40,643 nucleotides of DNA. Source: an uncultured Clostridia bacterium. GTDB taxonomy: Bacteria > Bacillota > Clostridia > Oscillospirales > CAG-272. This document shows, piece by piece, positions 28,495 through 39,857 of the stretch. The position numbers and the translations under genes are program-made. Position 1 is the first letter of the stretch; every line of letters begins with the position of its first letter. The stretch lies in NCBI GenBank assembly GCA_944384525.1, contig CALWTR010000018.1:1-40643 (forward strand), given 5' to 3'. The notes below the pieces were generated by a model that did no database searches, was not told where the DNA came from, and saw only the letters and a program-made list of their open reading frames with translations.

Positions 28495-28570
28495 CTGGGT
28501 GTGGCGCAGTTGGTAGCGCGCTACCTTGGGGTGGTAGAGGCCGCAAGTTCAAGTCTTGTCACTCAGACCA
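28495..28570 (+). tRNA. tRNA-Pro (anticodon GGG), CCA encoded
   Basis: 76 nt. Acceptor CTGGGTG pairs with CACTCAG (one G.T). The D arm is GCGC/GCGC, the anticodon stem CTACC/GGTAG surrounds TTGGGGT, the T loop is TTCAAGT, and ACCA is the 3' end. Its last 31 nt recur at 28725-28755, marking it as a likely integration target. Confidence 0.93.
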
Positions 28571-28614
28571 GAAAAAGCAGAAAGGACAAAGAGTCTGATC
28601 TGCTTTTTCTTTTT
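28571..28614 (+). terminator. terminator directly after tRNA-Pro
   Basis: GAAAAAGCAG (28571-28580) pairs with CTGCTTTTTC (28600-28609), followed by TTTTTATATT. It lies inside the 185-bp unit bounded by the tRNA 3'-end repeats, so it may have arrived with the insertion. Confidence 0.85.
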
Positions 28615-28724: not shown

Positions 28725-28755
28725 GCCGCAAGTTCAAGTCTTGTCACTCAGACCA
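28725..28755 (+). repeat. duplicate of the tRNA-Pro 3' end (att-like site)
   Basis: 31 nt identical to 28540-28570, covering the distal part of the variable region, the T arm, the acceptor 3' strand and CCA. Sequence before and after it is unrelated to that around the intact tRNA. Integrases that use tRNA 3' ends leave exactly this kind of direct repeat. Confidence 0.85.
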
Positions 28756-28763
28756 AAATCGAG

Positions 28764-28808: not shown

Positions 28809-29040
28809 ATTCTTCGACAGCACGGAGCGTTATGTTCGGAATAAGCGGGGTGAGAGTGCAAATGAGCACTCCGGCAAAGAATATACTGAACCGATGTCCG
28901 GCGAAAGCATACTACCCGATGATATAAAGACGGACGGTGACGAGGTGTGAAGATAATTCTGCGTAGGCATCGCTCACGTGCTCCACCGTTGATCCTTTTT
29001 CAGTTGTCACACAAAAACAAGAGAACGAAAGGATATGAAT

Positions 29041-29394
29041 ATGAAAAATGCTATCACATACAAAAATAGGAACGGTTACCTTTATCCCCTGCTGGCACTT
29101 CCCAAAACAGAAGAAGCGCCGATCGGCAAATACGGGCGGATGTATCTTGACTATCTCAAGAAACATCGGCGAGGTACATACATTTCTCTGCTGACAAGTG
29201 GCAATCTTGGTGAAGAACTCTCCAAATTTGACGCAGAAGTGCGAAATGAAGTTGACCTCATACTTGCCCGACTTATAGATGAACGAGGCATCACAGAAGC
29301 CCTGAAATCCGCGAACCCGCTTCATTGGGTGCAGGAAATGAATACCGCAAAGCATGATGCGGAGAAAACCGTCATCTGGGCGATGTTTCAATGA
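29041..29394 (+). CDS. tnpV: TnpV-family transposon-encoded protein
   Basis: 117 aa. The ATG at 29041 is preferred over 29035 because AAAGGA is seven nt upstream of it and only one nt from the other. YLYPLLALPKTEE, PIGKYGRMYLDYLKKHRRG and the C-terminal NPLHWVQEMN are the TnpV signature. This small protein is carried by Tn4451-type and other Clostridia integrative elements; its function is unknown. No recombinase is beside it, so it is a passenger or a remnant. It is convergent with the defence genes. Confidence 0.88.
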   Translation: MKNAITYKNRNGYLYPLLALPKTEEAPIGKYGRMYLDYLKKHRRGTYISLLTSGNLGEELSKFDAEVRNEVDLILARLIDERGITEALKSANPLHWVQEMNTAKHDAEKTVIWAMFQ

Positions 29395-29439: not shown

Positions 29440-29473
29440 GAGACCGTATGCCATCGGTTTGGCATACGGTCTC
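29440..29473. terminator. terminator between tnpV and the leftward island operon
   Basis: Perfect 14-bp stem (29440-29453 with 29460-29473), loop TCGGTT. On the minus strand it is followed by ATTTTTAC, so it mainly closes the leftward genes. The stretch 29474-29557 holds nothing else seen. Confidence 0.87.
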
Positions 29474-29557: not shown

Positions 29558-32500
29558 TCACCATGCGCTTGTACCGATTTCTGAGAACAAATGGTCTCGT
29601 TTCCCCTCTGCTGCATAATCATCGCTTAACCACCGCAACAATTGAGCCGATTCAGGATATGTAACTTCCAATAGTTTTGCATCTTCTCGTAATTTTTTAG
29701 AGCAATTGATTTCGTATGTCCCGTCTTCGACGGATCGAACTCCTCGCGAATTCAATTTTCCAATCATTACATGGTGATTTAAGCGGTATTCTCTATAAGA
29801 TTCTAGAACATCTCGAACGACCTCATGCGGGAAAATACCATCTGAACCATTTGGCGCTTTCCCAAGAATACTACCCAACATCGGGAGTAACATATCCTTA
29901 TCTGTATGATTATCAACGATAGTTTTTACAAAAAAATGAAACGCTTTCGGATCATCGTAGGCAATTAGGGGCAAATCATAGTGTAGGTGGAAGTGCGAAT
30001 ATGTTTTCCCTGTTAGATGAACTTCTGCTTCACACAAAAGATGAGGATTTTCAAAATAGTACCTTTTGAGCGCATTGGGATATGTTTGCAGCCAGTCCTG
30101 TTCATATAACGCAACGCATAACTTTGCCCATTCTTCTGAATAATATCCTTCCTCATCAATTCGAGATAGAAGCTCCTCCATTTCATATGAATAAAGATTA
30201 TTAGGAGGCGCCGCTCCTAATGATAATACTGCTTTGATTATTTCGATTATTTTGTCGATCTCAATACACAACGATACTTTATGGCGATACGAAAAATACG
30301 AAAGCAACTCACAAGGATTGTACGCAAGCAATTTTGAATATGTATTGGGATCGAATTCACACATTATTTGGTGTGACCAATATGCTTTTTCTTTTTCTTC
30401 TGTATTCAACCACCCCTCAATATCTTTGCGGTACATATTTTGCAAAGCAAAAATCTGTTCTTCGGGGGGAAATGTGTCTAGTATAGTAATGCAATCCTCT
30501 ATCTTTGCACCATCTAACAATCCGTGAAGAATCCTATTTTTCTGTAACCGGCGGGCTTCATACACAAAATTTAACAACATGGCAGATGAGAGCACACGTG
30601 CATAGAAAGATCCCCAAGAAGCATCGTCATTGGAATAGCGAACTAATGCGATCAATTTTTCCGAGTGCTCCTGTACTAATGCGTTTATTACCTCAACACG
30701 CTTGGACTCTATTGCTTTTTGATTGCCCTCCCAATCATCGCATTCATGGATTTCTGAAGAATGACAGTGATAAAAATCATGAAACAGCCAGCCTACCTGT
30801 CCGATTGAATCAGATGGAGTTGTAACGTTGATCCAAGTTTCCAACGCCGGGAGCCATGGTTTTGTCACATCGTTTTTCCTCGCGTAAAAAGCTTGTTCAC
30901 GAAGTCTCGAATTTAGCGATACTAATTCCTCCGGTGTATATTCACCCTTAGCAAATAACCTCGCTGCTGACTGTAAGGTGTCAAGAGAAAAATGATGGTA
31001 TCCTTCAAGAAGTTTTTTCAGGCAACCGATGTCATGATATTCTATGCTCTTATCAAATGTAATCAACGCTAGGTCGTTGATTGCCTTAAATAATTCATTG
31101 GTATATATCGGCATTCGAGACAATTGCTTTGCACCGCTATGTACGCCCTGAAAAATACTATCTTTTAATAGTAAGTCAACTGCAAATGATAGAAAATATA
31201 CTTCATCCATTGAAAAATAGCGTTTTATTAGTTTAACTTTATCATTCACGGTTAAAACGGTATGATCATTCCAAAGGCAAAGCGCCGTTAATAAAGACTC
31301 CCTTGGAGAGTTTGACGTCACGAACTTGCTGTTTTGGGTTTTGAGACACAAATCGAACAAAAAATCGCAGGCGTGAATTCTCGTGTCATCGTGAAGCACC
31401 AACTCGTCCAATGCAAATAACACCTTGCAATAATTTCTCGAATAAATGTCTTCTTTAAATGTAGAATTCACAATACCGTCCGGATTGATTGCATCTTTTT
31501 CAAAAAAATCCATTACAATTTGAGGGGCGGCTTCGGATAGTAAAGCCAAGTACTCAAACGCCAAAGCAGGAAGTGGATCAATAGCCAGTATTCTTGCAAC
31601 AGCTTGCTCTATACATTCTTTTTCGCCTTCATTGTATGAAAAATAAATCAAGTCCAAAAAAAGATTATAGAGATGCCTTTGGGTTCTGCCATCTATATAA
31701 CTTGGGGAATTCTCTTCCAAATACTGGTTTGAAATAATAGTGCAAAGCGCCTCTGTAAAACGCGAGAATATCGGATTATTAGTGCTCAGGTTTAAAACTT
31801 GCCATGCTTCTTCAAAATTGATCAATACAATATGGTCGTCTACACGTTTAATGGGAGAATCTTCCCAACGAAGCCATTCATCATATTTTTCGGATACAAC
31901 CTCATATTTTTCTCCCGCTAAATAAGAAACCAGATCACAGTCGCTTTTATTTTGGGTATCAAAATCGCGAAGCAAAAGAACCGGCGCAAGTAAAATTATT
32001 CTGTCAAAAGTCGCCCATTGTGGAGCACTCATCGTGGTATTACCGGGAAGTTTACGAATTAACGACAATAAATTTCCATGAGTACTTCCGTAAAGATCTA
32101 TCGCCTTCAATTCCGGAATGGACATATCTTTAATCGCTCTAGCAAAGTACGATTTTGTCAATTGACGCAGCTCTATGTTCGCACGAATTGTTCGAGCTTC
32201 TTTATTATAGCACAATATTACTCTATTGCCTGGAATCACATCATCATCCGCGTTCAACTGGCAATTGAGTAAAAATAATTTGTTGTGGCAGAATTGAGAG
32301 AGATTTTTGTATGTTGTTTGATTATTGATAACAATTACGGTGTTAGCTAAATCTTCATTTTTAAGTATAACTGATAAGCAAAAGCCGAAAGAGTCAATTG
32401 TAGTATCCGCTTTCACTCTAATTATGGATGAATCCAAAGCTTCAAGAAAATTTTTTGCTTCTACGTCGCGTCCCTCGAGAAATAGCGAATGGGAAAAAGC

Positions 32501-33067
32501 AGGGGACGACTTTGACGAAAAACGTTCCCATGCCGAAGACGCCGTTAGAAAATCAATGTCCCCTGTTTCCCCAAACTGTTCCAATAACCATGCGCATACT
32601 GCAGGTTCCGAATTGATCCAATCAGATAACACATTTGCATCATAAATATGGATCCCCTTCCATTCTTGCTGATGCTCCGTTTCCCACTTTGGTATTGACC
32701 ATCCTTGATTATCATAAGCCCAGACATGAGGAAGAACAAAATAAATAGTTGTCTCTTCTTTTACCATTCCGAGAGGGTTTTGATTTCGTTTTTCCCAATC
32801 TTCATTGATTTTTTTCAAGGAATTCCTATTCGTACCAATTTCCCAAACACTTTTCCCTGCACATACATAGAGGGTCGACTCTTCACTTTCCACTATTCCG
32901 TCAAAACCAGGAGACCAATTATCATCCTTGCTTGGCATTCTGATATTTTTAACATTGTTTGAATTGCAAAGAATCAGTTTTTTAATCAGTTCCGGCAACA
33001 ACTCTTGGAACAACTTTGGGCGTTCGGCAGCCATTGCCGACAGTTTAGTTCCTGAAAAGATATCCAT
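29558..33067 (-). CDS. unrecognised 1169-aa protein, possible nuclease-like N-terminus (candidate defence gene)
   Basis: Start at 33067, set by GGAGG nine nt upstream. Residues about 15-150 show a pattern recalled from large uncharacterised proteins of phage-defence type: a helix with PELIKKL, then NWSPGFDGIVES near 54 and KSVWEIGTNR near 75, then NEDWEKR, a hydrophobic TTIYFVLPHVW strand, and DANVLSDWINSEPAVCAWL. The Asp in FDG and Glu in WEIG could be part of a PD-(D/E)xK-like site, but the Lys is not in the standard place. Residues about 190-350 look like an alpha/beta domain with alternating strands, yet no Walker A P-loop is present. The rest is long and alpha-helical, like a solenoid. 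It is AT-richer than the chromosome. It lies 94 bp behind the restriction-modification gene. Function unknown. Confidence 0.8.
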   Translation of the reverse strand: MDIFSGTKLSAMAAERPKLFQELLPELIKKLILCNSNNVKNIRMPSKDDNWSPGFDGIVESEESTLYVCAGKSVWEIGTNRNSLKKINEDWEKRNQNPLGMVKEETTIYFVLPHVWAYDNQGWSIPKWETEHQQEWKGIHIYDANVLSDWINSEPAVCAWLLEQFGETGDIDFLTASSAWERFSSKSSPAFSHSLFLEGRDVEAKNFLEALDSSIIRVKADTTIDSFGFCLSVILKNEDLANTVIVINNQTTYKNLSQFCHNKLFLLNCQLNADDDVIPGNRVILCYNKEARTIRANIELRQLTKSYFARAIKDMSIPELKAIDLYGSTHGNLLSLIRKLPGNTTMSAPQWATFDRIILLAPVLLLRDFDTQNKSDCDLVSYLAGEKYEVVSEKYDEWLRWEDSPIKRVDDHIVLINFEEAWQVLNLSTNNPIFSRFTEALCTIISNQYLEENSPSYIDGRTQRHLYNLFLDLIYFSYNEGEKECIEQAVARILAIDPLPALAFEYLALLSEAAPQIVMDFFEKDAINPDGIVNSTFKEDIYSRNYCKVLFALDELVLHDDTRIHACDFLFDLCLKTQNSKFVTSNSPRESLLTALCLWNDHTVLTVNDKVKLIKRYFSMDEVYFLSFAVDLLLKDSIFQGVHSGAKQLSRMPIYTNELFKAINDLALITFDKSIEYHDIGCLKKLLEGYHHFSLDTLQSAARLFAKGEYTPEELVSLNSRLREQAFYARKNDVTKPWLPALETWINVTTPSDSIGQVGWLFHDFYHCHSSEIHECDDWEGNQKAIESKRVEVINALVQEHSEKLIALVRYSNDDASWGSFYARVLSSAMLLNFVYEARRLQKNRILHGLLDGAKIEDCITILDTFPPEEQIFALQNMYRKDIEGWLNTEEKEKAYWSHQIMCEFDPNTYSKLLAYNPCELLSYFSYRHKVSLCIEIDKIIEIIKAVLSLGAAPPNNLYSYEMEELLSRIDEEGYYSEEWAKLCVALYEQDWLQTYPNALKRYYFENPHLLCEAEVHLTGKTYSHFHLHYDLPLIAYDDPKAFHFFVKTIVDNHTDKDMLLPMLGSILGKAPNGSDGIFPHEVVRDVLESYREYRLNHHVMIGKLNSRGVRSVEDGTYEINCSKKLREDAKLLEVTYPESAQLLRWLSDDYAAEGKRDHLFSEIGTSAW

Positions 33068-33161: not shown

Positions 33162-36100
33162 TTACTCACCCATCGCCTCCAGAACCCGATCCACGGTCTT
33201 GCCGTCCCAGTCGGTGCAGAGCATTTGCTTGGTGATGATGGTTTTATAGAGCGGGTTTTGCTCGATGACGCTCCAGAGATGGCGGAGGATGCGGATATAG
33301 TCATCAAAATTATCCTGCACTTTGGAAGCCACGGTTTTGCGCCATTCCTCGGCGGGTTCTTTGCCGGCGTAAATGTCGTTGAGCTGCTTGCAGAGATAGT
33401 TGATAGCACCGCCGATACCGGGAAGTTCGTTTTCGTTGGCGTCCGGATTTTTCGGTTCTTCCGCAATCTTTACATGGAGCAACAGATGTTCGAGCAGATT
33501 GCAATAGACAAGCCGATTCTTTTTCTGATACTCAAACGGATTCCGCGCGGCATACTCGTCATTGCTGAGCATGATTGCCTTATCTTCATCGATATGATGG
33601 CAGAAGAGACCTTCGGCGGTACGGGAAACCAACTTGTTCTTGAGGGTGCATTCTCTGTCGGTGAAATAATCATGCTTTGCGGCACCGTATTTTTTCAGAA
33701 GAAGTTTGACAATTTCGTCATAGGACATGGAGAGCATTTGATCATACGGGGACAGTTCATCCATAGAACGAATTTTTGATTCAATAAATGCAATTTCATT
33801 GTCAGAAAAACTGTATTTTTTGTAAAGGTACTGATCGATATTCTCTACACTATCGTCCCAGTTAACATCAGAATGTGAGGTGAAATTTTGAGCGGGGACA
33901 TATTTCCATACTTCACGAGGGTTGTCTTGTGTAACTTTTAGTGCCCCCAACAAGGTGCGAGCAAACTTTGTTTTTATGTACTTCAATACCGCTTCTGCTT
34001 CAAACAACGAGTTAAACTTTCCAATACTAAGAAAAGTTACGGTATGCCCGACAACGGGCTGCCCGACAACGGGCGTAGACAATACCTCTCCTATTGCGCC
34101 TGAGCCATTTGCTTTGGGAATAAACACCTTGTAGAAATCAAAATTGTCTGGTGTCTTCAAATACTTTCGTTTAATCCATTTGAAACATCTTCCGTTTTTA
34201 TCGCGTCCGCATATTTGCGCGTACTCATCGTTATCTTCCGGCTTTTTATCAAAAAACAATTCAGGAAAAATGTCGAATATATTTGAACCAACATCATACT
34301 TATGTCCTTCGCTCGGTCGGGTTATCGCCCAACTATTTTCCTCATAAAGAGTCTCTGTGAGCCGATACAAGTCTCTGGGATATACTAATTCAGAAAATGT
34401 GCTAAAATCGCTTCTACTGGTTACTTTGGCTACAATAGTACGCAGTTCATCAAACGGCGAGAAGAAACCTATTTCACCGAAATCTTTTTTGGCATCCCAA
34501 TAGGTAACCGCAATTCCGCCTTTAACGTCAACAGACGGAAATACGGATGTACTGTCGCTCCAATATGACACAACTTTGTAATGACAGTCATGAAGCATTT
34601 TGTCGTTCCACTCTTTTGGGGTTTTCCCTGCGTTGAACAAAAATCTGCCGGGATGTATAAATGTACCCTTTTCGCTCAGTTGACGCCCCATGTTGATGAA
34701 CAAGTGATATATTGGATCTTTTCCGTTTCCGTCGCCGCTATTTTCAATTTGATACGGCGGATTCCCGACGATTGCATCGAACTTCATTTCTTTCACCTCT
34801 TTTCCCCAATAGCTGCCTTTGAGGATTTTCTTTTTGAACTGCTCCGGTTTGCTTTTCAGCATATTGACAAGGTCATCAAAATAGTGGGCATTGACGACAT
34901 TATCGTGATAACCGGTCAACGTGCGTTTTGTGATATATTTTGCCATCGGGGTTTTGCAGATGACATAGATATTGTCGCGGAGAACTTCTTCCCACATGGC
35001 TTGCAGTTCGGCGGGCTCCCAGTCGTCATCGGTGGTGTCCTCCAGCTTCTGACGGTAAACACTGTAAGCGACATAGAGCGGATACAAGCCGGTCTTGGAG
35101 TTGATCTCCAGAATATGCGTATCCTCGCGGAACACTTCTTTTGTCACCTCTCCCTGTTCCACAAAGCGTGGCTCGTCCAGACGGTGCTTTTCCTCCTGCG
35201 TGTCGTCCTCAAACTGTTCATTGAAGAAGCACCAACCGCCCAGCGTATCGCTCATATGCATATTGACAACACGCCACGGTGTCAGGACAGTTTCCTTGTC
35301 AGGATTTTTGAAATGGCGGAAGATCTCGGCAATCAGTTTTACGCGTCTTGTGGGCGTTTCTTTGTCCGCCGCTGCTGCCAGTTTACGAATGCGCTTACCT
35401 GCCGCAATGAACACATCGCGGTCGTAATATTTTGTGAAATCCGCAAACAGCGGCTTGGTCACGCCTTTGGGCATAAACTCAGCCCATGAGGTATCGTCCA
35501 CCAGTTCCACAAAGCGGTCAATGTCGATGTCCTCGTCAATCGGCACATTGGCGCCGTAAATCATCAGCGGCATACGGATAGAAATGCCTCGGAGAATATC
35601 AATGGCTTTTTTGCGCGCTTCCTTCGCCTGTTTCTTTTTCAGGCGATCCGCGATTTCTTCCGGCGTTGGCGGTGTGGGAGGTGTGACGGGCTCATCATCG
35701 CCGTCGTCGATATGGGCGATCTGCTCATCGGTCAGTCCCTGACCGTTGACAATGACTTTGTCTTTTTTCTTCTGCGCTTTGGAGGCGCCGATAATGTCCT
35801 TCAACGCATTGAATTTTGAGGCATCGATATCGTCGAGTTTCAGAAGTTCATCGTTATAAATGGATTCGTCTTCAAACCCGCTGTTGACGGCTCTCTCGGC
35901 GTAAATCTGCTTGACCTGCTCCATCATGGAATTGACGCTGTATTTAGTCATTCTCGATCCGGCAATCGCAATGACGGGGCAATAGTTCAGAAATTCTGTC
36001 ATTGCCTCACGGCGCTTTTTCTGATTCTTGCCGGGCTTACGGGAGAGATGTACGGTTTCGGTCAGCACTTTCAGGGTTCTGTCAGGTGCAAAGTCAAAAA

Positions 36101-37847
36101 CATAGCAATCGGTTTTCTGCTTGCCGTCAATACATCCGGCAGACTGCACACGGAAAATGGTCTGCATATACTGAGAAGCAGCTGTGGAATAGGAGCCGGA
36201 AAGCATCAGTACCGCCGTCCACTCCGGAACGGTCACGCCCGTGGTCAGTTTTCCGCAGGAAAGCGTGATGGAATACTTATTTTCACGGATGGTTTTGCGG
36301 ACAAGCTCCAGCGCGTCCTTTGCGTGGTCTTCCTCGTAAGTATCGCCCTCTCCGGCAACATTGGCAATGCCGAAATGCATAAACACCGGGTGATGGCGGA
36401 GCATTTCGCTGAGTGCCCTTGCCTCTTTGACACCGGGCACCATCCACAGCGTAGGGCGGAACATATTACGGTAGGCATCGGTAGAGAAGGGATAGATGCT
36501 GTCCTTGTCCTCTTTTGCCATCAGATCCAGGAAAGAACGGACGTCCGCTTCGTGTACGAAGTTGCCCTCAACGGCACCTTGCGGAATTTCACGCCTGCCA
36601 TGCGGTCCTCTTGACCATACACGGAAGAATTCGCGGAAGTTGAATGCTTTGGTATCGTATTCGTCCGAGACATATTTTTTCAGTTTTTCGCCGAGATCGT
36701 AGGTATAGATATGCATCTGCGGCAGATCGGCATAGGGGTTGTGGTCACCGTAATGCTCCGCGTCCCACTCTGCCTTTTTCTTCTGCTCCATGACATAGTC
36801 CCAGGTATAGACATTGTCTTCGCCGAACTTATCAAGCAGATTGAACGGCGTGCCGGACAAAGCCAGCACCTTGGTGCTCGCTTTGCGCAATTGTTTTATG
36901 ACATGATCGCCCAGTTCGGTCTGTGTGCCTTCGTGGGCCTCGTCAACGATGATAAGATCCCAGTTCAGGTCAAATACTGCGTTGTTTTTATTGAATTTTC
37001 CGCCGACACGTTTGGAACCGCGCAGATCCTGAATCGACGCAAAATAGAGGAAATAGGCGCCGTCTTTATCAAGCCGTTTGATTTTCAGATCATTTTCAAG
37101 GTCGATCTTCTCATCGTAGGTATAAGCGGGGTCGTTGGTTTTCAGTTCAAAAGAATAGTCATGCTCGGACGAGCCCGGATAAAAGATTTTTGCAAAATCC
37201 GTGCTCCATCCGTCACTGACGACCGGACGATGCGTAACAATGATCACACGGCGATACTGCGAACGGCGCACGACTTCAAGGGCTGTCAGCGTTTTGCCAA
37301 AACGCATTTTGGCATACCACAGCATTTCGTTCTCTTTTTTGAACGCTTTGATGGTCTGTTCGATTGCCGCCTTCTGTTCGTCACGGAAATCTATTTTTGC
37401 AACCGTCTGCCCGTCAGAGGTTTTCTCGGTTGCGGAAAGCGCGGACTTGCCCTGCTTTACGGCGAGGATCGCGCGAATTGCCACATCAACCGTCGTGGCA
37501 AACCATTCCTCGCCCGTTGCACCGTTCGGCTGTACCTTATGAATGCCGGAATTCATCAGAACCTTGTGGACATCCTTGTCCTTGAAAGTGAATGAATATC
37601 CGTCCTTTTGCAGGACAGCCAGTTCGGTATATTCCAGTTTGAAGTTCACGCTTGCGGTTGCTGTATAGCCTTTGATACGGGCAATAGCCGCCTGATTCAG
37701 TTCTCGGCAATTCGGTGTCAGGTATTCGGGTTTCGTATCCGTGGTCAGTGTCGCCTCACCGATTTTCAGAAGCCCCTTATGGGTATCGTAGGGCATGCTG
37801 AAAACATATATGAGTTTGTATTTATAGGTGCAATCAAACTTTTCCAT
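33162..37847 (-). CDS. single-chain restriction-modification protein: GIY-YIG-like nuclease, SF2 helicase, N6-adenine methylase, HNH-like
   Basis: 1561 aa from the ATG at 37847 (GAGGAG eight nt upstream). Domains in order: residues about 8-130 resemble the GIY-YIG T5orf172/Mug113 family (LIYVFSM, LLKIGEAT, GATGEEWF); about 160-560 is an SF2 helicase/translocase with AKMRFGKT near 185, IIVDEAHEG near 300, LSGTPFN and QTIFRVQSAG; about 870-1080 is an Eco57I-type methylase with motif X TPWRVVNMHM, motif I-like EINSKTGLYPLY and catalytic NPPY near 1027; about 1100-1350 is probably the target-recognition region; about 1400-1460 is HNH-like (CHHIDED..CNLLEHLLLH). It should methylate host sites and cut unmodified DNA after translocation, as type ISP/IIG enzymes do. 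Having two nuclease-like ends is unusual. Confidence 0.9.
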   Translation of the reverse strand: MEKFDCTYKYKLIYVFSMPYDTHKGLLKIGEATLTTDTKPEYLTPNCRELNQAAIARIKGYTATASVNFKLEYTELAVLQKDGYSFTFKDKDVHKVLMNSGIHKVQPNGATGEEWFATTVDVAIRAILAVKQGKSALSATEKTSDGQTVAKIDFRDEQKAAIEQTIKAFKKENEMLWYAKMRFGKTLTALEVVRRSQYRRVIIVTHRPVVSDGWSTDFAKIFYPGSSEHDYSFELKTNDPAYTYDEKIDLENDLKIKRLDKDGAYFLYFASIQDLRGSKRVGGKFNKNNAVFDLNWDLIIVDEAHEGTQTELGDHVIKQLRKASTKVLALSGTPFNLLDKFGEDNVYTWDYVMEQKKKAEWDAEHYGDHNPYADLPQMHIYTYDLGEKLKKYVSDEYDTKAFNFREFFRVWSRGPHGRREIPQGAVEGNFVHEADVRSFLDLMAKEDKDSIYPFSTDAYRNMFRPTLWMVPGVKEARALSEMLRHHPVFMHFGIANVAGEGDTYEEDHAKDALELVRKTIRENKYSITLSCGKLTTGVTVPEWTAVLMLSGSYSTAASQYMQTIFRVQSAGCIDGKQKTDCYVFDFAPDRTLKVLTETVHLSRKPGKNQKKRREAMTEFLNYCPVIAIAGSRMTKYSVNSMMEQVKQIYAERAVNSGFEDESIYNDELLKLDDIDASKFNALKDIIGASKAQKKKDKVIVNGQGLTDEQIAHIDDGDDEPVTPPTPPTPEEIADRLKKKQAKEARKKAIDILRGISIRMPLMIYGANVPIDEDIDIDRFVELVDDTSWAEFMPKGVTKPLFADFTKYYDRDVFIAAGKRIRKLAAAADKETPTRRVKLIAEIFRHFKNPDKETVLTPWRVVNMHMSDTLGGWCFFNEQFEDDTQEEKHRLDEPRFVEQGEVTKEVFREDTHILEINSKTGLYPLYVAYSVYRQKLEDTTDDDWEPAELQAMWEEVLRDNIYVICKTPMAKYITKRTLTGYHDNVVNAHYFDDLVNMLKSKPEQFKKKILKGSYWGKEVKEMKFDAIVGNPPYQIENSGDGNGKDPIYHLFINMGRQLSEKGTFIHPGRFLFNAGKTPKEWNDKMLHDCHYKVVSYWSDSTSVFPSVDVKGGIAVTYWDAKKDFGEIGFFSPFDELRTIVAKVTSRSDFSTFSELVYPRDLYRLTETLYEENSWAITRPSEGHKYDVGSNIFDIFPELFFDKKPEDNDEYAQICGRDKNGRCFKWIKRKYLKTPDNFDFYKVFIPKANGSGAIGEVLSTPVVGQPVVGHTVTFLSIGKFNSLFEAEAVLKYIKTKFARTLLGALKVTQDNPREVWKYVPAQNFTSHSDVNWDDSVENIDQYLYKKYSFSDNEIAFIESKIRSMDELSPYDQMLSMSYDEIVKLLLKKYGAAKHDYFTDRECTLKNKLVSRTAEGLFCHHIDEDKAIMLSNDEYAARNPFEYQKKNRLVYCNLLEHLLLHVKIAEEPKNPDANENELPGIGGAINYLCKQLNDIYAGKEPAEEWRKTVASKVQDNFDDYIRILRHLWSVIEQNPLYKTIITKQMLCTDWDGKTVDRVLEAMGE
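34045..34074 (-). repeat. 15-bp tandem repeat (two copies) inside the methylase specificity region
   Basis: TGCCCGACAACGGGC occurs twice in a row, exact. The length keeps the frame and encodes PVVGQPVVGH around residues 1258-1267. Each unit is itself a GCCCG/CGGGC hairpin. Confidence 0.92.
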
Positions 37848-38826
37848 GTTTTTTGCTCCTCTCAAACAAATCAATAAATCTTACGGAATGTTCGCGGCTC
37901 CAATCCATGATCCGGCAGTAGGTGCCGATATGGAGAGCGTTATCGTTTTTCAAGCAGCCGGGGCACGGCTCGTTTTTTGTCCTATCATCGAATAAGGACA
38001 ACTGAGAATTTTCAATCGGTTTACACGAATTCGGGATTACATATTTTAACCCGTCCATCTGCCAAAGATTCCATGAAAGGATTTTTGCGATTTTTACCAG
38101 GTATTCCTTAATCGGTGGTACGGTGAACCGATCCGTATAGTAGTCGATAAAGGAAAACAGCAGATTTTCGCGGGCAATCAACAGGCTGTCGCCTTGCCAT
38201 TCAAAGCCATACACCGATTGAAAGGCTTTGGTTACCCACTTCATCCAATCCTGTTCGGTCTCTGTGTTTTCGTTGACAATGCGTATTTTGCGATCCAGGA
38301 TGCCGATCCTGTCGCGCACTTCAATCCATTTTCCGGTCACGGTGTCATAACGGCTCGCAAGGTATGGTGCTTCACCGCAGGAAATCTCCATGCGGTTGGC
38401 TTTTACATAGTCCTGCCATGTCCTGCCTTCGGGAAAAGTAATTTTTTCTGTCGATGTGATCCATGTCTGATCGTTCTCTGTGTTAAACACATTTTCTCTG
38501 CCGAACCATGCGTTGTCCACAAGGTTATTTTGGTTGTTACATACCCATGACGGAGTGAAAACCTCCGCCTTGTCACGAACGCGAATTGCCTGTTCCTTTT
38601 TTGATTTTGTCGTTCGTGGTTTGATAACGCTTCCGTTACGGTGCGTAATGCTATCTACCATGATCTGATCGCTGCTTTGGTACCCAAACCCGCGCTCGGC
38701 ATAATTATCGGTCGCCCAAATAATATTTTTGCCAGAGCTCTTATCGAGAAGCAAAATTGCAAGCAGATTCGCATCCAGCTGGTAGATATAATTTTCTTTT
38801 ATATCAATGTTTTGTTCCATTTTCAT
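37834..38826 (-). CDS. restriction-modification accessory protein ('restriction endonuclease subunit M'-like)
   Basis: 330 aa. The start could be 38826 or the ATG two codons later; neither has a strong site. It overlaps the large restriction-modification gene by 14 bp, so the two are translationally coupled. AEVFTPSWVCNNQN near residues 80-95 looks like methylase motif X, but no motif I or NPPY follows, so it is not a complete methylase. It also has the stretch ISCGEAPYLASRYD and a Cys-containing CPGCLKND segment near 290. Proteins like this are commonly found next to helicase-methylase fusions; the role (specificity, regulation or structural partner) is not established. Confidence 0.78.
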   Translation of the reverse strand: MKMEQNIDIKENYIYQLDANLLAILLLDKSSGKNIIWATDNYAERGFGYQSSDQIMVDSITHRNGSVIKPRTTKSKKEQAIRVRDKAEVFTPSWVCNNQNNLVDNAWFGRENVFNTENDQTWITSTEKITFPEGRTWQDYVKANRMEISCGEAPYLASRYDTVTGKWIEVRDRIGILDRKIRIVNENTETEQDWMKWVTKAFQSVYGFEWQGDSLLIARENLLFSFIDYYTDRFTVPPIKEYLVKIAKILSWNLWQMDGLKYVIPNSCKPIENSQLSLFDDRTKNEPCPGCLKNDNALHIGTYCRIMDWSREHSVRFIDLFERSKKHGKV

Positions 38827-38925: not shown

Positions 38926-39438
38926 TTAATTATCGTAGTATATTTTGTGTTTTAAGGGCATACATGCGTTCGTATGCGCGGTACACAGGGATCTATCATT
39001 AGCACGCTCAAATGCTGTCCGCACCAATGATTCAATCGCTTGATCCATCTCGCTCCAATATGCCCACACCACATAGTTTTTGTTATCCCATAGCTTGGGC
39101 GAAATAGTGCTCAATTCCAATTGACTTAGTGAATCGCTTCTGGAAGGTAAATGAACAGCTATAACCCCAAGTCGTTGACCCACTATGCCACAAAGCGCTG
39201 TGTGTATTTCTCTATCAACATGAGGTCTACTGTATGTTTCTTTACCAATCAAACATAGCAACACTTGACATTTCTTAACATGTTTACATGTAAAATTTCG
39301 AATCGTTTCATTGCTTTTTCCATTAAAATCTGCATTTTCCGGAACCGCGTAATATTCGATTTGATGTGCTTTTAAAATAGTCTCAAGCTTTTTTCGATAT
39401 TTAGCATCGGCTCGGTGATAACTGATAAACACTTTCAT
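38926..39438 (-). CDS. TIR-like (DUF1863/ThsB-type) protein
   Basis: 170 aa from the ATG at 39438, which overlaps the stop of the upstream membrane-protein gene (ATGA), so the longer in-frame reading is not used. Beta-strand 1 MKVFISYHRAD, a helix, IEYYAVPENAD, then CQVLLCLIGKETYSRPHVDREI, the pattern of the MTH538/ThsB TIR-like family. Glu77 in HVDREI is at the place of the catalytic Glu of TIR NADases. ThsB-type TIRs in Thoeris defence make an NAD-derived signal after phage infection. No ThsA-like SIR2/SLOG gene is present; the partner here is a membrane protein. Confidence 0.86.
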   Translation of the reverse strand: MKVFISYHRADAKYRKKLETILKAHQIEYYAVPENADFNGKSNETIRNFTCKHVKKCQVLLCLIGKETYSRPHVDREIHTALCGIVGQRLGVIAVHLPSRSDSLSQLELSTISPKLWDNKNYVVWAYWSEMDQAIESLVRTAFERANDRSLCTAHTNACMPLKHKIYYDN

Positions 39439-39857
39439 CCTGCTATCCCCCAAACAGTCAATCCAATAATCAAAGCTCCGTACAAAGGAACTGTTGATGC
39501 CGATCCTATAAAAGCTCTCCAAAAAGAATAGTGCCATCCCGTAAATTTGTTCAAAGGCATTTCGTACTCACGAATTACAATATGGTTTTCAAGTCCGGCG
39601 ACATTATTATAAATACCAATAAATTTGTATTCTTTTGATAGATAGAAAGCATCCAAAACCCAAAATAAAACCACAGGTGCAAGAGCTATCCGAAGGTATA
39701 TCTTATTTCCCGTATTTGTTTCTGATATTGTTGAAACATACACAGCAATCAACGCTGAAACGGCGGCAATTGCCCATCCTTTTATTTGAAAAGAACATTG
39801 ATTCATGCGTGAAATACTATTTTGGATGAATTCCAAATGCTGCTCGTTCGGTTTCAT
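39435..39857 (-). CDS. small membrane protein coupled to the TIR-like gene
   Basis: 140 aa; AGGAG seven nt upstream of the ATG. Hydrophobic helices at about 24-45 (GWAIAAVSALIAVYVS), 54-72 (LAPVVLFWVLDAFYL) and 115-138 (STVPLYGALIIGLTVW), with a soluble loop of about 40 residues between the last two. There is no signal peptide and no enzyme motif. The 4-bp stop/start overlap with the TIR gene implies fixed stoichiometry and joint function. It could be a pore-forming or depolarising effector gated by a TIR product, or an anchor for the TIR protein. No family name recognised. Confidence 0.8.
   Translation of the reverse strand: MKPNEQHLEFIQNSISRMNQCSFQIKGWAIAAVSALIAVYVSTISETNTGNKIYLRIALAPVVLFWVLDAFYLSKEYKFIGIYNNVAGLENHIVIREYEMPLNKFTGWHYSFWRAFIGSASTVPLYGALIIGLTVWGIAG

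What the first reader, a model, noticed from the sequence alone, without database searches (positions are those of the whole stretch)
29558..33067. Unrecognised 1169-aa island protein, possible nuclease-like N-terminus and no P-loop
The N-terminal block (FDG near 54, WEIG near 75, TTIYFVLPHVW, AVCAWL) has the look of large single-gene defence proteins, but the next alpha/beta region lacks a Walker A, and the rest is a long helical region. Unlike Avs/STAND proteins it would need an ATP-independent way to sense and respond. It sits at the distal end of a defence-like operon and differs in composition from the chromosome.
Basis: partly seen in the sequence, partly recalled or inferred. Interest (0 to 1): 0.75.

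Follow-up and report, generated by a model that had tools for sequence, protein, structure and literature searches.

The report
Nuclease immune receptor without ATP switch
This gene encodes a large bacterial protein built like a known kind of virus-sensing immune receptor, with a DNA-cutting front end and a long sensor tail, but its middle ATP-binding switch has lost the parts that bind ATP, so it probably defends cells in an ATP-independent way.

Summary
The gene is an open 1169-aa frame on the minus strand (ATG 33067, stop 29558-29560), last in a run that includes R-M and TIR genes, with G+C 0.389 against 0.502 for bases 1-28500. Pfam, PADLOC and NCBIfam give it no family. It belongs to a broad, patchy family: a scan with one member found 349 related stretches in GTDB genomes, of which 80 were read. 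AlphaFold and profile comparison give: PD-(D/E)XK nuclease-like domain, STAND-type nucleotide-binding, helical and winged-helix domains, helical superhelix. Foldseek's best matches for residues 1-430 are Avs3, AVAST5 and Avs4, with low TM-scores. The family is co-linear with P-loop-bearing PD-lambda-4A relatives (hhalign E 2.9e-24; 1.1e-12 for residues 1-430), but none of 86 aligned members has a Walker A there. Nuclease Asp and Glu are invariant (84 of 84); the catalytic Lys seems to have moved to the next helix. Best reading: a pseudo-NTPase (inactive-STAND) nuclease receptor that works without ATP. Inactive STANDs are published in other systems, so this is a new variant of a known kind. Phage sensing and DNA cleavage are inferred, not shown.

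The parts
29558..33067 (-). Coding sequence of the pseudo-STAND nuclease receptor, 1169 aa plus stop
   Evidence: relatives
32576..33067 (-). Residues 1-164: PD-(D/E)XK nuclease-like domain (GxDG, WExG, Lys-containing helix)
   Evidence: co-linear with the DGGxD...QxK region of PD-lambda-4A relatives
32900..32902 (-). Asp56 codon, invariant (84 of 84 rows that cover it; 2 of 86 rows do not reach it)
32840..32842 (-). Glu76 codon, invariant (84 of 84 rows that cover it; 2 of 86 rows do not reach it)
32810..32812 (-). Lys86 codon, proposed migrated catalytic lysine
   Evidence: 79 of 84 rows; reciprocal with Lys78
32168..32488 (-). Residues 194-300: degenerate STAND nucleotide-binding domain without Walker A or B
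32387..32410 (-). Residues 220-227 (ADTTIDSF), aligned with the P-loop GASGLGKS of PD-lambda-4A relatives
   Evidence: alignment; family rows
32048..32155 (-). Residues 305-340: helical domain after the NBD
31787..32008 (-). Residues 354-427: winged-helix-like domain (helices plus strands 406-409 and 412-415)
29561..31780 (-). Residues 430-1169: helical-repeat superhelix, presumed sensor
29440..29473 (-). Terminator-like hairpin after the gene (14 pairs)
   Evidence: pattern match only
33162..37874 (-). Upstream neighbour: helicase plus Eco57I-type methyltransferase, type IIG-like R-M protein
37834..38826 (-). Upstream neighbour: PADLOC MTase_II protein
38926..39537 (-). Upstream neighbour: TIR protein (ThsB-like / PDC-M50B-like)
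39435..39857 (-). Upstream neighbour: small PDC-M50A protein

Best explanation
A single-chain innate immune receptor derived from the PD-lambda-4A/Avs kind of STAND protein whose nucleotide switch has decayed. Supported by sequence and models: an N-terminal PD-(D/E)XK-type domain with intact Asp and Glu and a probably relocated Lys, a STAND-fold NBD without Walker A or B, a helical domain, a winged helix and a helical superhelix. Inferred: the superhelix recognises a phage component, and binding is transmitted through the pseudo-NBD and winged helix, as a mechanical relay and oligomer interface and not as an ATP/ADP switch, to bring the nuclease domains together. They then cut DNA and abort or restrict infection. 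In outline this resembles DSR2, where binding of phage tail tube protein changes the conformation of the chain and activates an N-terminal effector.
For: Single-sequence tblastn finds 19 plasmid records, the two best spanning residues 48-1172 of the 1183-aa frame in two pieces (57% covered, E 7e-25 and 4e-25; no record covers 80% in one place), a 45% relative in the genus and a 35% one in the phage collection. A scan with a 4-row family alignment found 349 stretches encoding a relative of member P0012 in GTDB genomes. hhalign of the family (69 rows) with 9 P-loop-bearing PD-lambda-4A relatives: 99.6%, E 2.9e-24 over 986 columns; residues 1-430 only, so not driven by helical repeats: 97.8%, E 1.1e-12. 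P0018, the annotated form of one of the nine, hits PADLOC PD-Lambda-4_A at 3.4e-51. Model pLDDT 79.3 whole, 91.7 for 1-430. Foldseek ranks Avs4 first and second for the whole protein, and Avs3, AVAST5, Avs3, Avs4, Avs4 as ranks 1-5 for 1-430, then AAA+ clamp loaders, with apoptosome and Sso1545 proteins lower down. Walker A at the site in 0 of 86. Asp56 and Glu76 in 84 of 84. The three rows with canonical ExK all lack Lys86 (Fisher p 1e-4, not corrected for relatedness; two of the three are sisters). Defence neighbours: R-M and TIR here; Drt3a/Drt3b-like and PDC-S31-like proteins beside L002, and a DrmD-like helicase with a type III R-M operon around the G612 member.
Against: No phage, DNA-cleavage or oligomer data. 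The window protein and its two closest relatives are not found by the 9-sequence PD-lambda-4A HMM at E 1e-3; 51 of 93 family proteins, near-copies included, are, so the link runs through the family. Foldseek TM-scores are low (0.17 for Avs4 whole; 0.22-0.32 for ranks 1-5 of 1-430), and for the whole protein ranks 3-12 are mostly eukaryotic helical-repeat proteins with similar E-values. Gly stands at the canonical Lys of ExK in 74 of 84, and 2 of 84 have neither Lys. Neighbourhoods of the members scanned are mixed and include housekeeping genes; no PADLOC model at E 1e-10 matches more than 2 of 147 neighbours; the one neighbour of the G315 member scanned had no PADLOC hit.
Confidence: 0.55

Rival explanations
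1. The pseudo-NTPase is a nucleic-acid receptor: the inactive STAND and helical part bind invading DNA or RNA directly, and the nuclease cuts it, perhaps as an accessory to the neighbouring restriction-modification genes.
For: Inactive STAND modules in other conflict systems have been proposed as nucleic-acid receptors (PMC8195603, passages read). R-M genes lie directly upstream in the window, and the G612 member sits inside a DrmD-like helicase plus type III R-M operon.
Against: R-M genes are not a constant neighbour: no PADLOC model matched more than 2 of 147 neighbours scanned. Foldseek gives Avs3, Avs4 and AVAST5 as best matches; the Avs3 and Avs4 entries are complexes with phage proteins.
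Confidence: 0.2
2. The protein is a subunit that needs a P-loop-bearing PD-lambda-4A paralogue to form a mixed STAND assembly.
For: A PD-lambda-4A-like gene lies next to family members on Rhizobium plasmids (L003; L096) and in L035.
Against: Of the 95 loci scanned with the PD-lambda-4A model (flanks 1.5-9 kb, many cut by contig ends) only L003 and L035 carry one, and the five other window proteins scanned do not. The PADLOC model found nothing in the host or 19 relatives, but nothing in 14 controls either, so that search is uninformative.
Confidence: 0.1
3. The nuclease domain is also dead, and the protein is a scaffold or regulator (for HTH-fused relatives, of the divergent AbiE toxin-antitoxin genes).
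For: ExG instead of ExK in 74 of 84 rows. AbiEi lies divergently beside 19 of 31 N-terminally extended members, AbiEii beside 18 of them; HTH found by Pfam in the 3 extended proteins scanned.
Against: Asp56 and Glu76 do not vary (84 of 84) and Lys78/Lys86 are reciprocal, which looks like selection on a catalytic centre. The window protein has no N-terminal HTH extension, and no AbiE family was found among the six window proteins scanned.
Confidence: 0.15

Closest known systems
PD-lambda-4A (PADLOC PD-Lambda-4_A; PD-lambda-4 is listed as a system of Vassallo et al. 2022 in PMC10952713, passage read)
   Same: Co-linear profile homology over 986 columns: nuclease-like domain, NBD, helical repeats.
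   Different: The nine relatives aligned have Walker A (GxSGxGKS/T) and most a Walker B-like VVDxC; this family has neither. Active-site region DGGxD...QxK against GxDG...WExG plus Lys in the helix.
Avs3, Avs4, Avs5 (AVAST STAND receptors)
   Same: Foldseek best matches; effector, STAND and sensor order; Avs4 is recalled, not looked up, as carrying an Mrr-like nuclease.
   Different: No nucleotide-binding motifs here; sequence identity in the matches 8-12%.
Inactive STAND modules: iSTAND, iSTAND2, BrxB (BREX)
   Same: STAND fold with lost NTP-binding motifs in conflict systems (passages read in PMC8195603 and PMC12839542).
   Different: The passages read describe components of MoxR-vWA ternary systems, BREX proteins (BrxB, and domains of PglZ and PglW), or a fusion to GT4/HEPN; here the inactive module is internal to one chain with a PD-(D/E)XK-type domain, a winged helix and a superhelix. 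No sequence comparison with them was made.
DSR2
   Same: N-terminal effector plus sensor domains, activated by binding of a phage tail tube protein; 'ATP' does not occur in the paper's main text as searched (PMC11087589, passages read).
   Different: Effector is a SIR2 NADase; no STAND module was mentioned in the passages read.

Membership tests
PD-lambda-4A | Profile homology along the chain | tested here: met
   family against nine relatives: hhalign 99.6%, E 2.9e-24, 986 columns; 97.8%, E 1.1e-12 for residues 1-430
PD-lambda-4A | PADLOC PD-Lambda-4_A model, or HMM of nine relatives, hits the window protein itself | tested here: not met
   0 PADLOC families at E 0.1; not among the 51 of 93 family proteins hit by the nine-sequence HMM
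PD-lambda-4A | Walker A and Walker B | tested here: not met
PD-lambda-4A | Partner gene PD-lambda-4B nearby (recalled as a two-gene system) | tested here: not met
   none among the five other proteins scanned; genes beyond the contig end not seen
STAND / Avs receptors | NBD, helical domain and winged-helix fold order | tested here: met
   AlphaFold model and Foldseek ranks 1-5, by prediction only and with low TM-scores
STAND / Avs receptors | P-loop NTPase motifs | tested here: not met
   0 of 86 at the aligned site
PD-(D/E)XK nuclease | Asp and Glu of the active site | tested here: met
   84 of 84 each
PD-(D/E)XK nuclease | Catalytic Lys of ExK | tested here: inconclusive
   ExK in 3 of 84; Lys86 in 79 of 84, reciprocal
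PD-(D/E)XK nuclease | DNA cleavage | not testable with these tools
   needs purified protein
iSTAND / iSTAND2 / BrxB | Profile similarity to those modules | not tested
   their sequences were not fetched
DSR2 | SIR2 N-terminal domain | tested here: not met
   no Pfam family at E 1

The most novel reading that the evidence does not exclude
A widespread clade of single-chain immune receptors in which the whole STAND apparatus is kept as an ATP-free mechanical relay between a phage sensor and a nuclease with a relocated catalytic lysine, showing that NLR-like defence does not need a nucleotide switch.
Probability: 0.45. Interest if true: 0.8.

Novelty: new variant of a known kind. Interest (0 to 1): 0.62.

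Why it matters
STAND receptors, from Avs proteins to plant and animal NLRs, are understood as nucleotide-driven switches. A broad family that keeps the fold and the effector but lacks the P-loop in every member aligned gives a direct way to ask which steps of receptor activation need ATP. It also names a gene that Pfam, PADLOC and NCBIfam models miss, and links it to a defence protein family named after a functional selection in E. coli.

Tried and rejected
Rejected: a plus-strand gene; an orphan of unknown ancestry (relatives found); a phage gene (the one phage-collection record, MT837561, is an unverified 6.6 kb contig whose other frames look like HsdM and a transposase by my reading, and the one viral scan made confirmed none of 15 candidates); membership of Avs or PD-lambda-4A in the strict sense (Walker motifs absent).

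Led nowhere: the genome scan with the single protein (8 candidates, none confirmed) and with the 7-row alignment (no conserved stretch); PADLOC PD-Lambda-4_A in 20 genomes and 14 controls (nothing rang, so uninformative); PDB sequence searches (E 0.23 or worse); the second structure aligner. Promoter-like sites in the region are at chance level (23 against 22.2 in shuffles). Paper searches (also 130 for AbiE) listed no title or abstract start that describes this family; the library holds open-licence PMC papers only, and apart from the five papers named below I saw listings only. Passages, not whole texts, were read of PMC10952713, PMC9519451, PMC11087589, PMC8195603 and PMC12839542. The term PD-lambda-4 does not occur in the main text of PMC9519451 as held; the name, with a P-loop domain, was seen in the table of PMC10952713.

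Rows dropped: 93 loci hold a family protein of 700 bits or more. The 86-row alignment holds the window protein and 85 of these; left out were two copies of the window gene (L001, L008), L016 (same as L010), L060 (near-copy of L037), and the four identical proteins L047-L050, the last by oversight; L047 was checked afterwards and has Asp56, Glu76, Gly78, Lys86 and no Walker A. L009 and L015, below the limit, were not aligned. The structure alignments used the window and 68 of the 69 search for related loci rows listed (L037 omitted; five fragments or split genes skipped before). The tree used 80 of the 86 rows, in quick mode with SH-aLRT support only, and many rows have uneven composition. The neighbour scan took genes within two places, 120 aa or longer, after removing 22 loci that I had taken for AbiE-type (two of them, L053 and L064, later showed no AbiE hit) and near-copies; 147 of the 167 proteins listed were given (left out: those of L004, L031, L033, L047, L074, L045, L093, and one each of L019, L082, L094). 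Only the top 25 families of those scans are shown, so the number of neighbours with any defence hit is not known.
Full report
Observation. The finding's interval holds one minus-strand gene of 1169 codons starting at ATG 33067. Upstream of it on the same strand lie a helicase-methyltransferase gene (33162-37874; 94 bases between its stop and the ATG), a PADLOC MTase_II gene, a TIR gene, a PDC-M50A gene and a RecG-C/winged-helix gene; downstream lies a terminator-like hairpin. Its G+C is 0.389 against 0.502 for bases 1-28500. Pfam, PADLOC and NCBIfam give no family, and the PDB sequences only matches with E 0.23 or worse.

Family. tblastn with the single protein found 19 plasmid records at 20-35% identity (best E 4e-25; the best hits span residues 48-1172 in pieces that cover 57%, none covers 80% in one place), one phage-collection record at 35% and one same-genus genome at 45%. 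A scan with an alignment of four relatives matched 393 stretches in the GTDB genome collection, 349 of which encode a relative of its first member, P0012; the best 80 were kept, from Bacteroidota, Pseudomonadota, Actinomycetota, Bacillota, Planctomycetota and others. The distribution is patchy: 2 of 59 genomes among relatives, 2 of 295 in the order, 7 of 398 in the phylum, the own genome counted each time and partial matches included. The window protein, L002 and L007 form one branch (SH-aLRT 100, quick tree).

Architecture. AlphaFold gives pLDDT 79.3 for the whole protein and 91.7 for residues 1-430: an alpha/beta domain 1-164, a second alpha/beta domain about 194-300, helices 305-339, a winged-helix-like part 354-427, then helices to the end. 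Foldseek on the whole model ranks two Avs4 chains first (E 3.4e-5, 5.1e-5) and EfAvs5 13th of 13 with E up to 0.001; the ten between are mostly eukaryotic helical-repeat proteins. On residues 1-430 ranks 1-5 are Avs3, AVAST5, Avs3, Avs4, Avs4 (best E 6.3e-6, four of them at E up to 0.001), followed by clamp loaders, RuvB and ORC, and lower down apoptosome and Sso1545 proteins; nucleases such as EcoO109I and Mus81 appear only at ranks 47 and 48 with E 0.46. TM-scores are low (0.22-0.32 for ranks 1-5), which is a weakness.

Relation to PD-lambda-4A. Downstream of the Rhizobium gallicum relative lies a large gene, P0018, that hits PADLOC PD-Lambda-4_A at 3.4e-51 and has a clear P-loop (GASGLGKS) and LLVVDECP. 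Nine such proteins compared with the 69-row family alignment give 99.6% probability, E 2.9e-24 over 986 columns, and 97.8%, E 1.1e-12 with residues 1-430 alone. There GASGLGKS aligns with ADTTIDSF, residues 220-227 of the window protein. An HMM of the nine finds 51 of 93 family proteins at E 1e-3, near-copies included, but not the window protein, L002 or L007. Four of the nine match AAA_16 weakly (best E 4.5e-4).

Loss of the switch, retention of the nuclease. At the P-loop site 0 of 86 rows have a Walker A, and no row holds GxxxxGK[ST] anywhere; four rows have AxxxxGK[ST] at other places. Asp56 and Glu76 are present in 84 of the 84 rows that cover them. Position 78 is Lys in 3, Gly in 74; position 86 is Lys in 79. 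The three with Lys78 (L058, L063, L092) all lack Lys86; two other rows (L019, L025) lack both (table 0/3/79/2, Fisher p 1.0e-4, not corrected for descent; L058 and L092 are sisters). This pattern is what a migrated catalytic lysine would give.

Context. L002 lies beside Drt3a-like and Drt3b-like reverse transcriptases, a PDC-S31-like protein and a UvrD-type helicase (a fifth protein scanned there had no hit); the G612 member lies between a DrmD-like helicase and a type III methyltransferase, PDC-S05 and type III restriction gene; one large neighbour of the G315 member had no hit. Of 31 rows with an N-terminal extension (HTH by Pfam in the 3 scanned), 19 have AbiEi beside them in divergent orientation, 18 of these with AbiEii too; none of the 55 unextended rows does, within flanks of 1.5-9 kb and at BLAST E 1e-8 with the L003 proteins as query (the near-copy L060 is not counted, and the extended L047-L050, not among the 86 rows, have none). 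PD-lambda-4A-like genes adjoin family members in L003, L096 and L035. Neighbours of the other members are diverse: no PADLOC model at E 1e-10 matches more than 2 of 147, no Pfam model at E 1e-6 more than 3, and housekeeping genes are among them. So defence is the best reading of context, but context alone does not prove it.

Mechanism. Supported by computation: homology, fold prediction, loss of Walker motifs, conservation of nuclease residues. Inferred: sensing by the superhelix, ATP-free relay, DNA cleavage, abortive or restrictive outcome. DSR2 offers a precedent for activation of an N-terminal effector by binding of a phage protein (PMC11087589, passages). [quoted passage not shown]

Novelty. 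The concept of an inactive STAND is known; a single-chain nuclease, inactive STAND, winged helix and repeat family related to PD-lambda-4A was not seen in the listings of the searches made. It is filed as a new variant of a known kind.

Noticed in passing
window 28540-28573 and 28725-28758: The 3' end of tRNA-Pro (28495-28570) is repeated 185 bases downstream (34 nt, 97%), just before the low-G+C region: an att-like duplication that suggests an island inserted at tRNA-Pro. A third, 3-mismatch copy lies on another contig.
   Followed up: partly
window 33162-38826: Unusual R-M pair: a 1570-aa protein joining helicase, Eco57I methylase and SAV1803-type domain, overlapping by 41 bases a PADLOC MTase_II protein without any Pfam domain at E 1.
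   Followed up: partly
window 38926-39857: Overlapping PDC-M50A-like protein and TIR (ThsB/PDC-M50B-like) genes, a candidate defence pair.
   Followed up: no
L003, L030, L036, L037, L040 and others: N-terminally extended (HTH-fused) family members stand back to back with AbiEi/AbiEii type IV toxin-antitoxin genes in 18 distinct loci with both genes and one with AbiEi alone.
   Followed up: partly
L104 2017-6144: A PD-lambda-4A-like gene annotated as alpha/beta fold hydrolase, which suggests effector exchange at the N-terminus.
   Followed up: no
L007 (MT837561): Record filed as a phage contig carries a 35% relative next to frames that look like HsdM and a transposase; more likely a bacterial mobile element (my reading).
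   Followed up: no
L009 (G315) and L019: Family members with an internal stop in the match or split into two frames; left as they are.
   Followed up: no
window 29035-29394 +: Small ORF between tRNA-Pro and the receptor gene that looks like a TnpV-type transposon protein (recalled, not searched).
   Followed up: no
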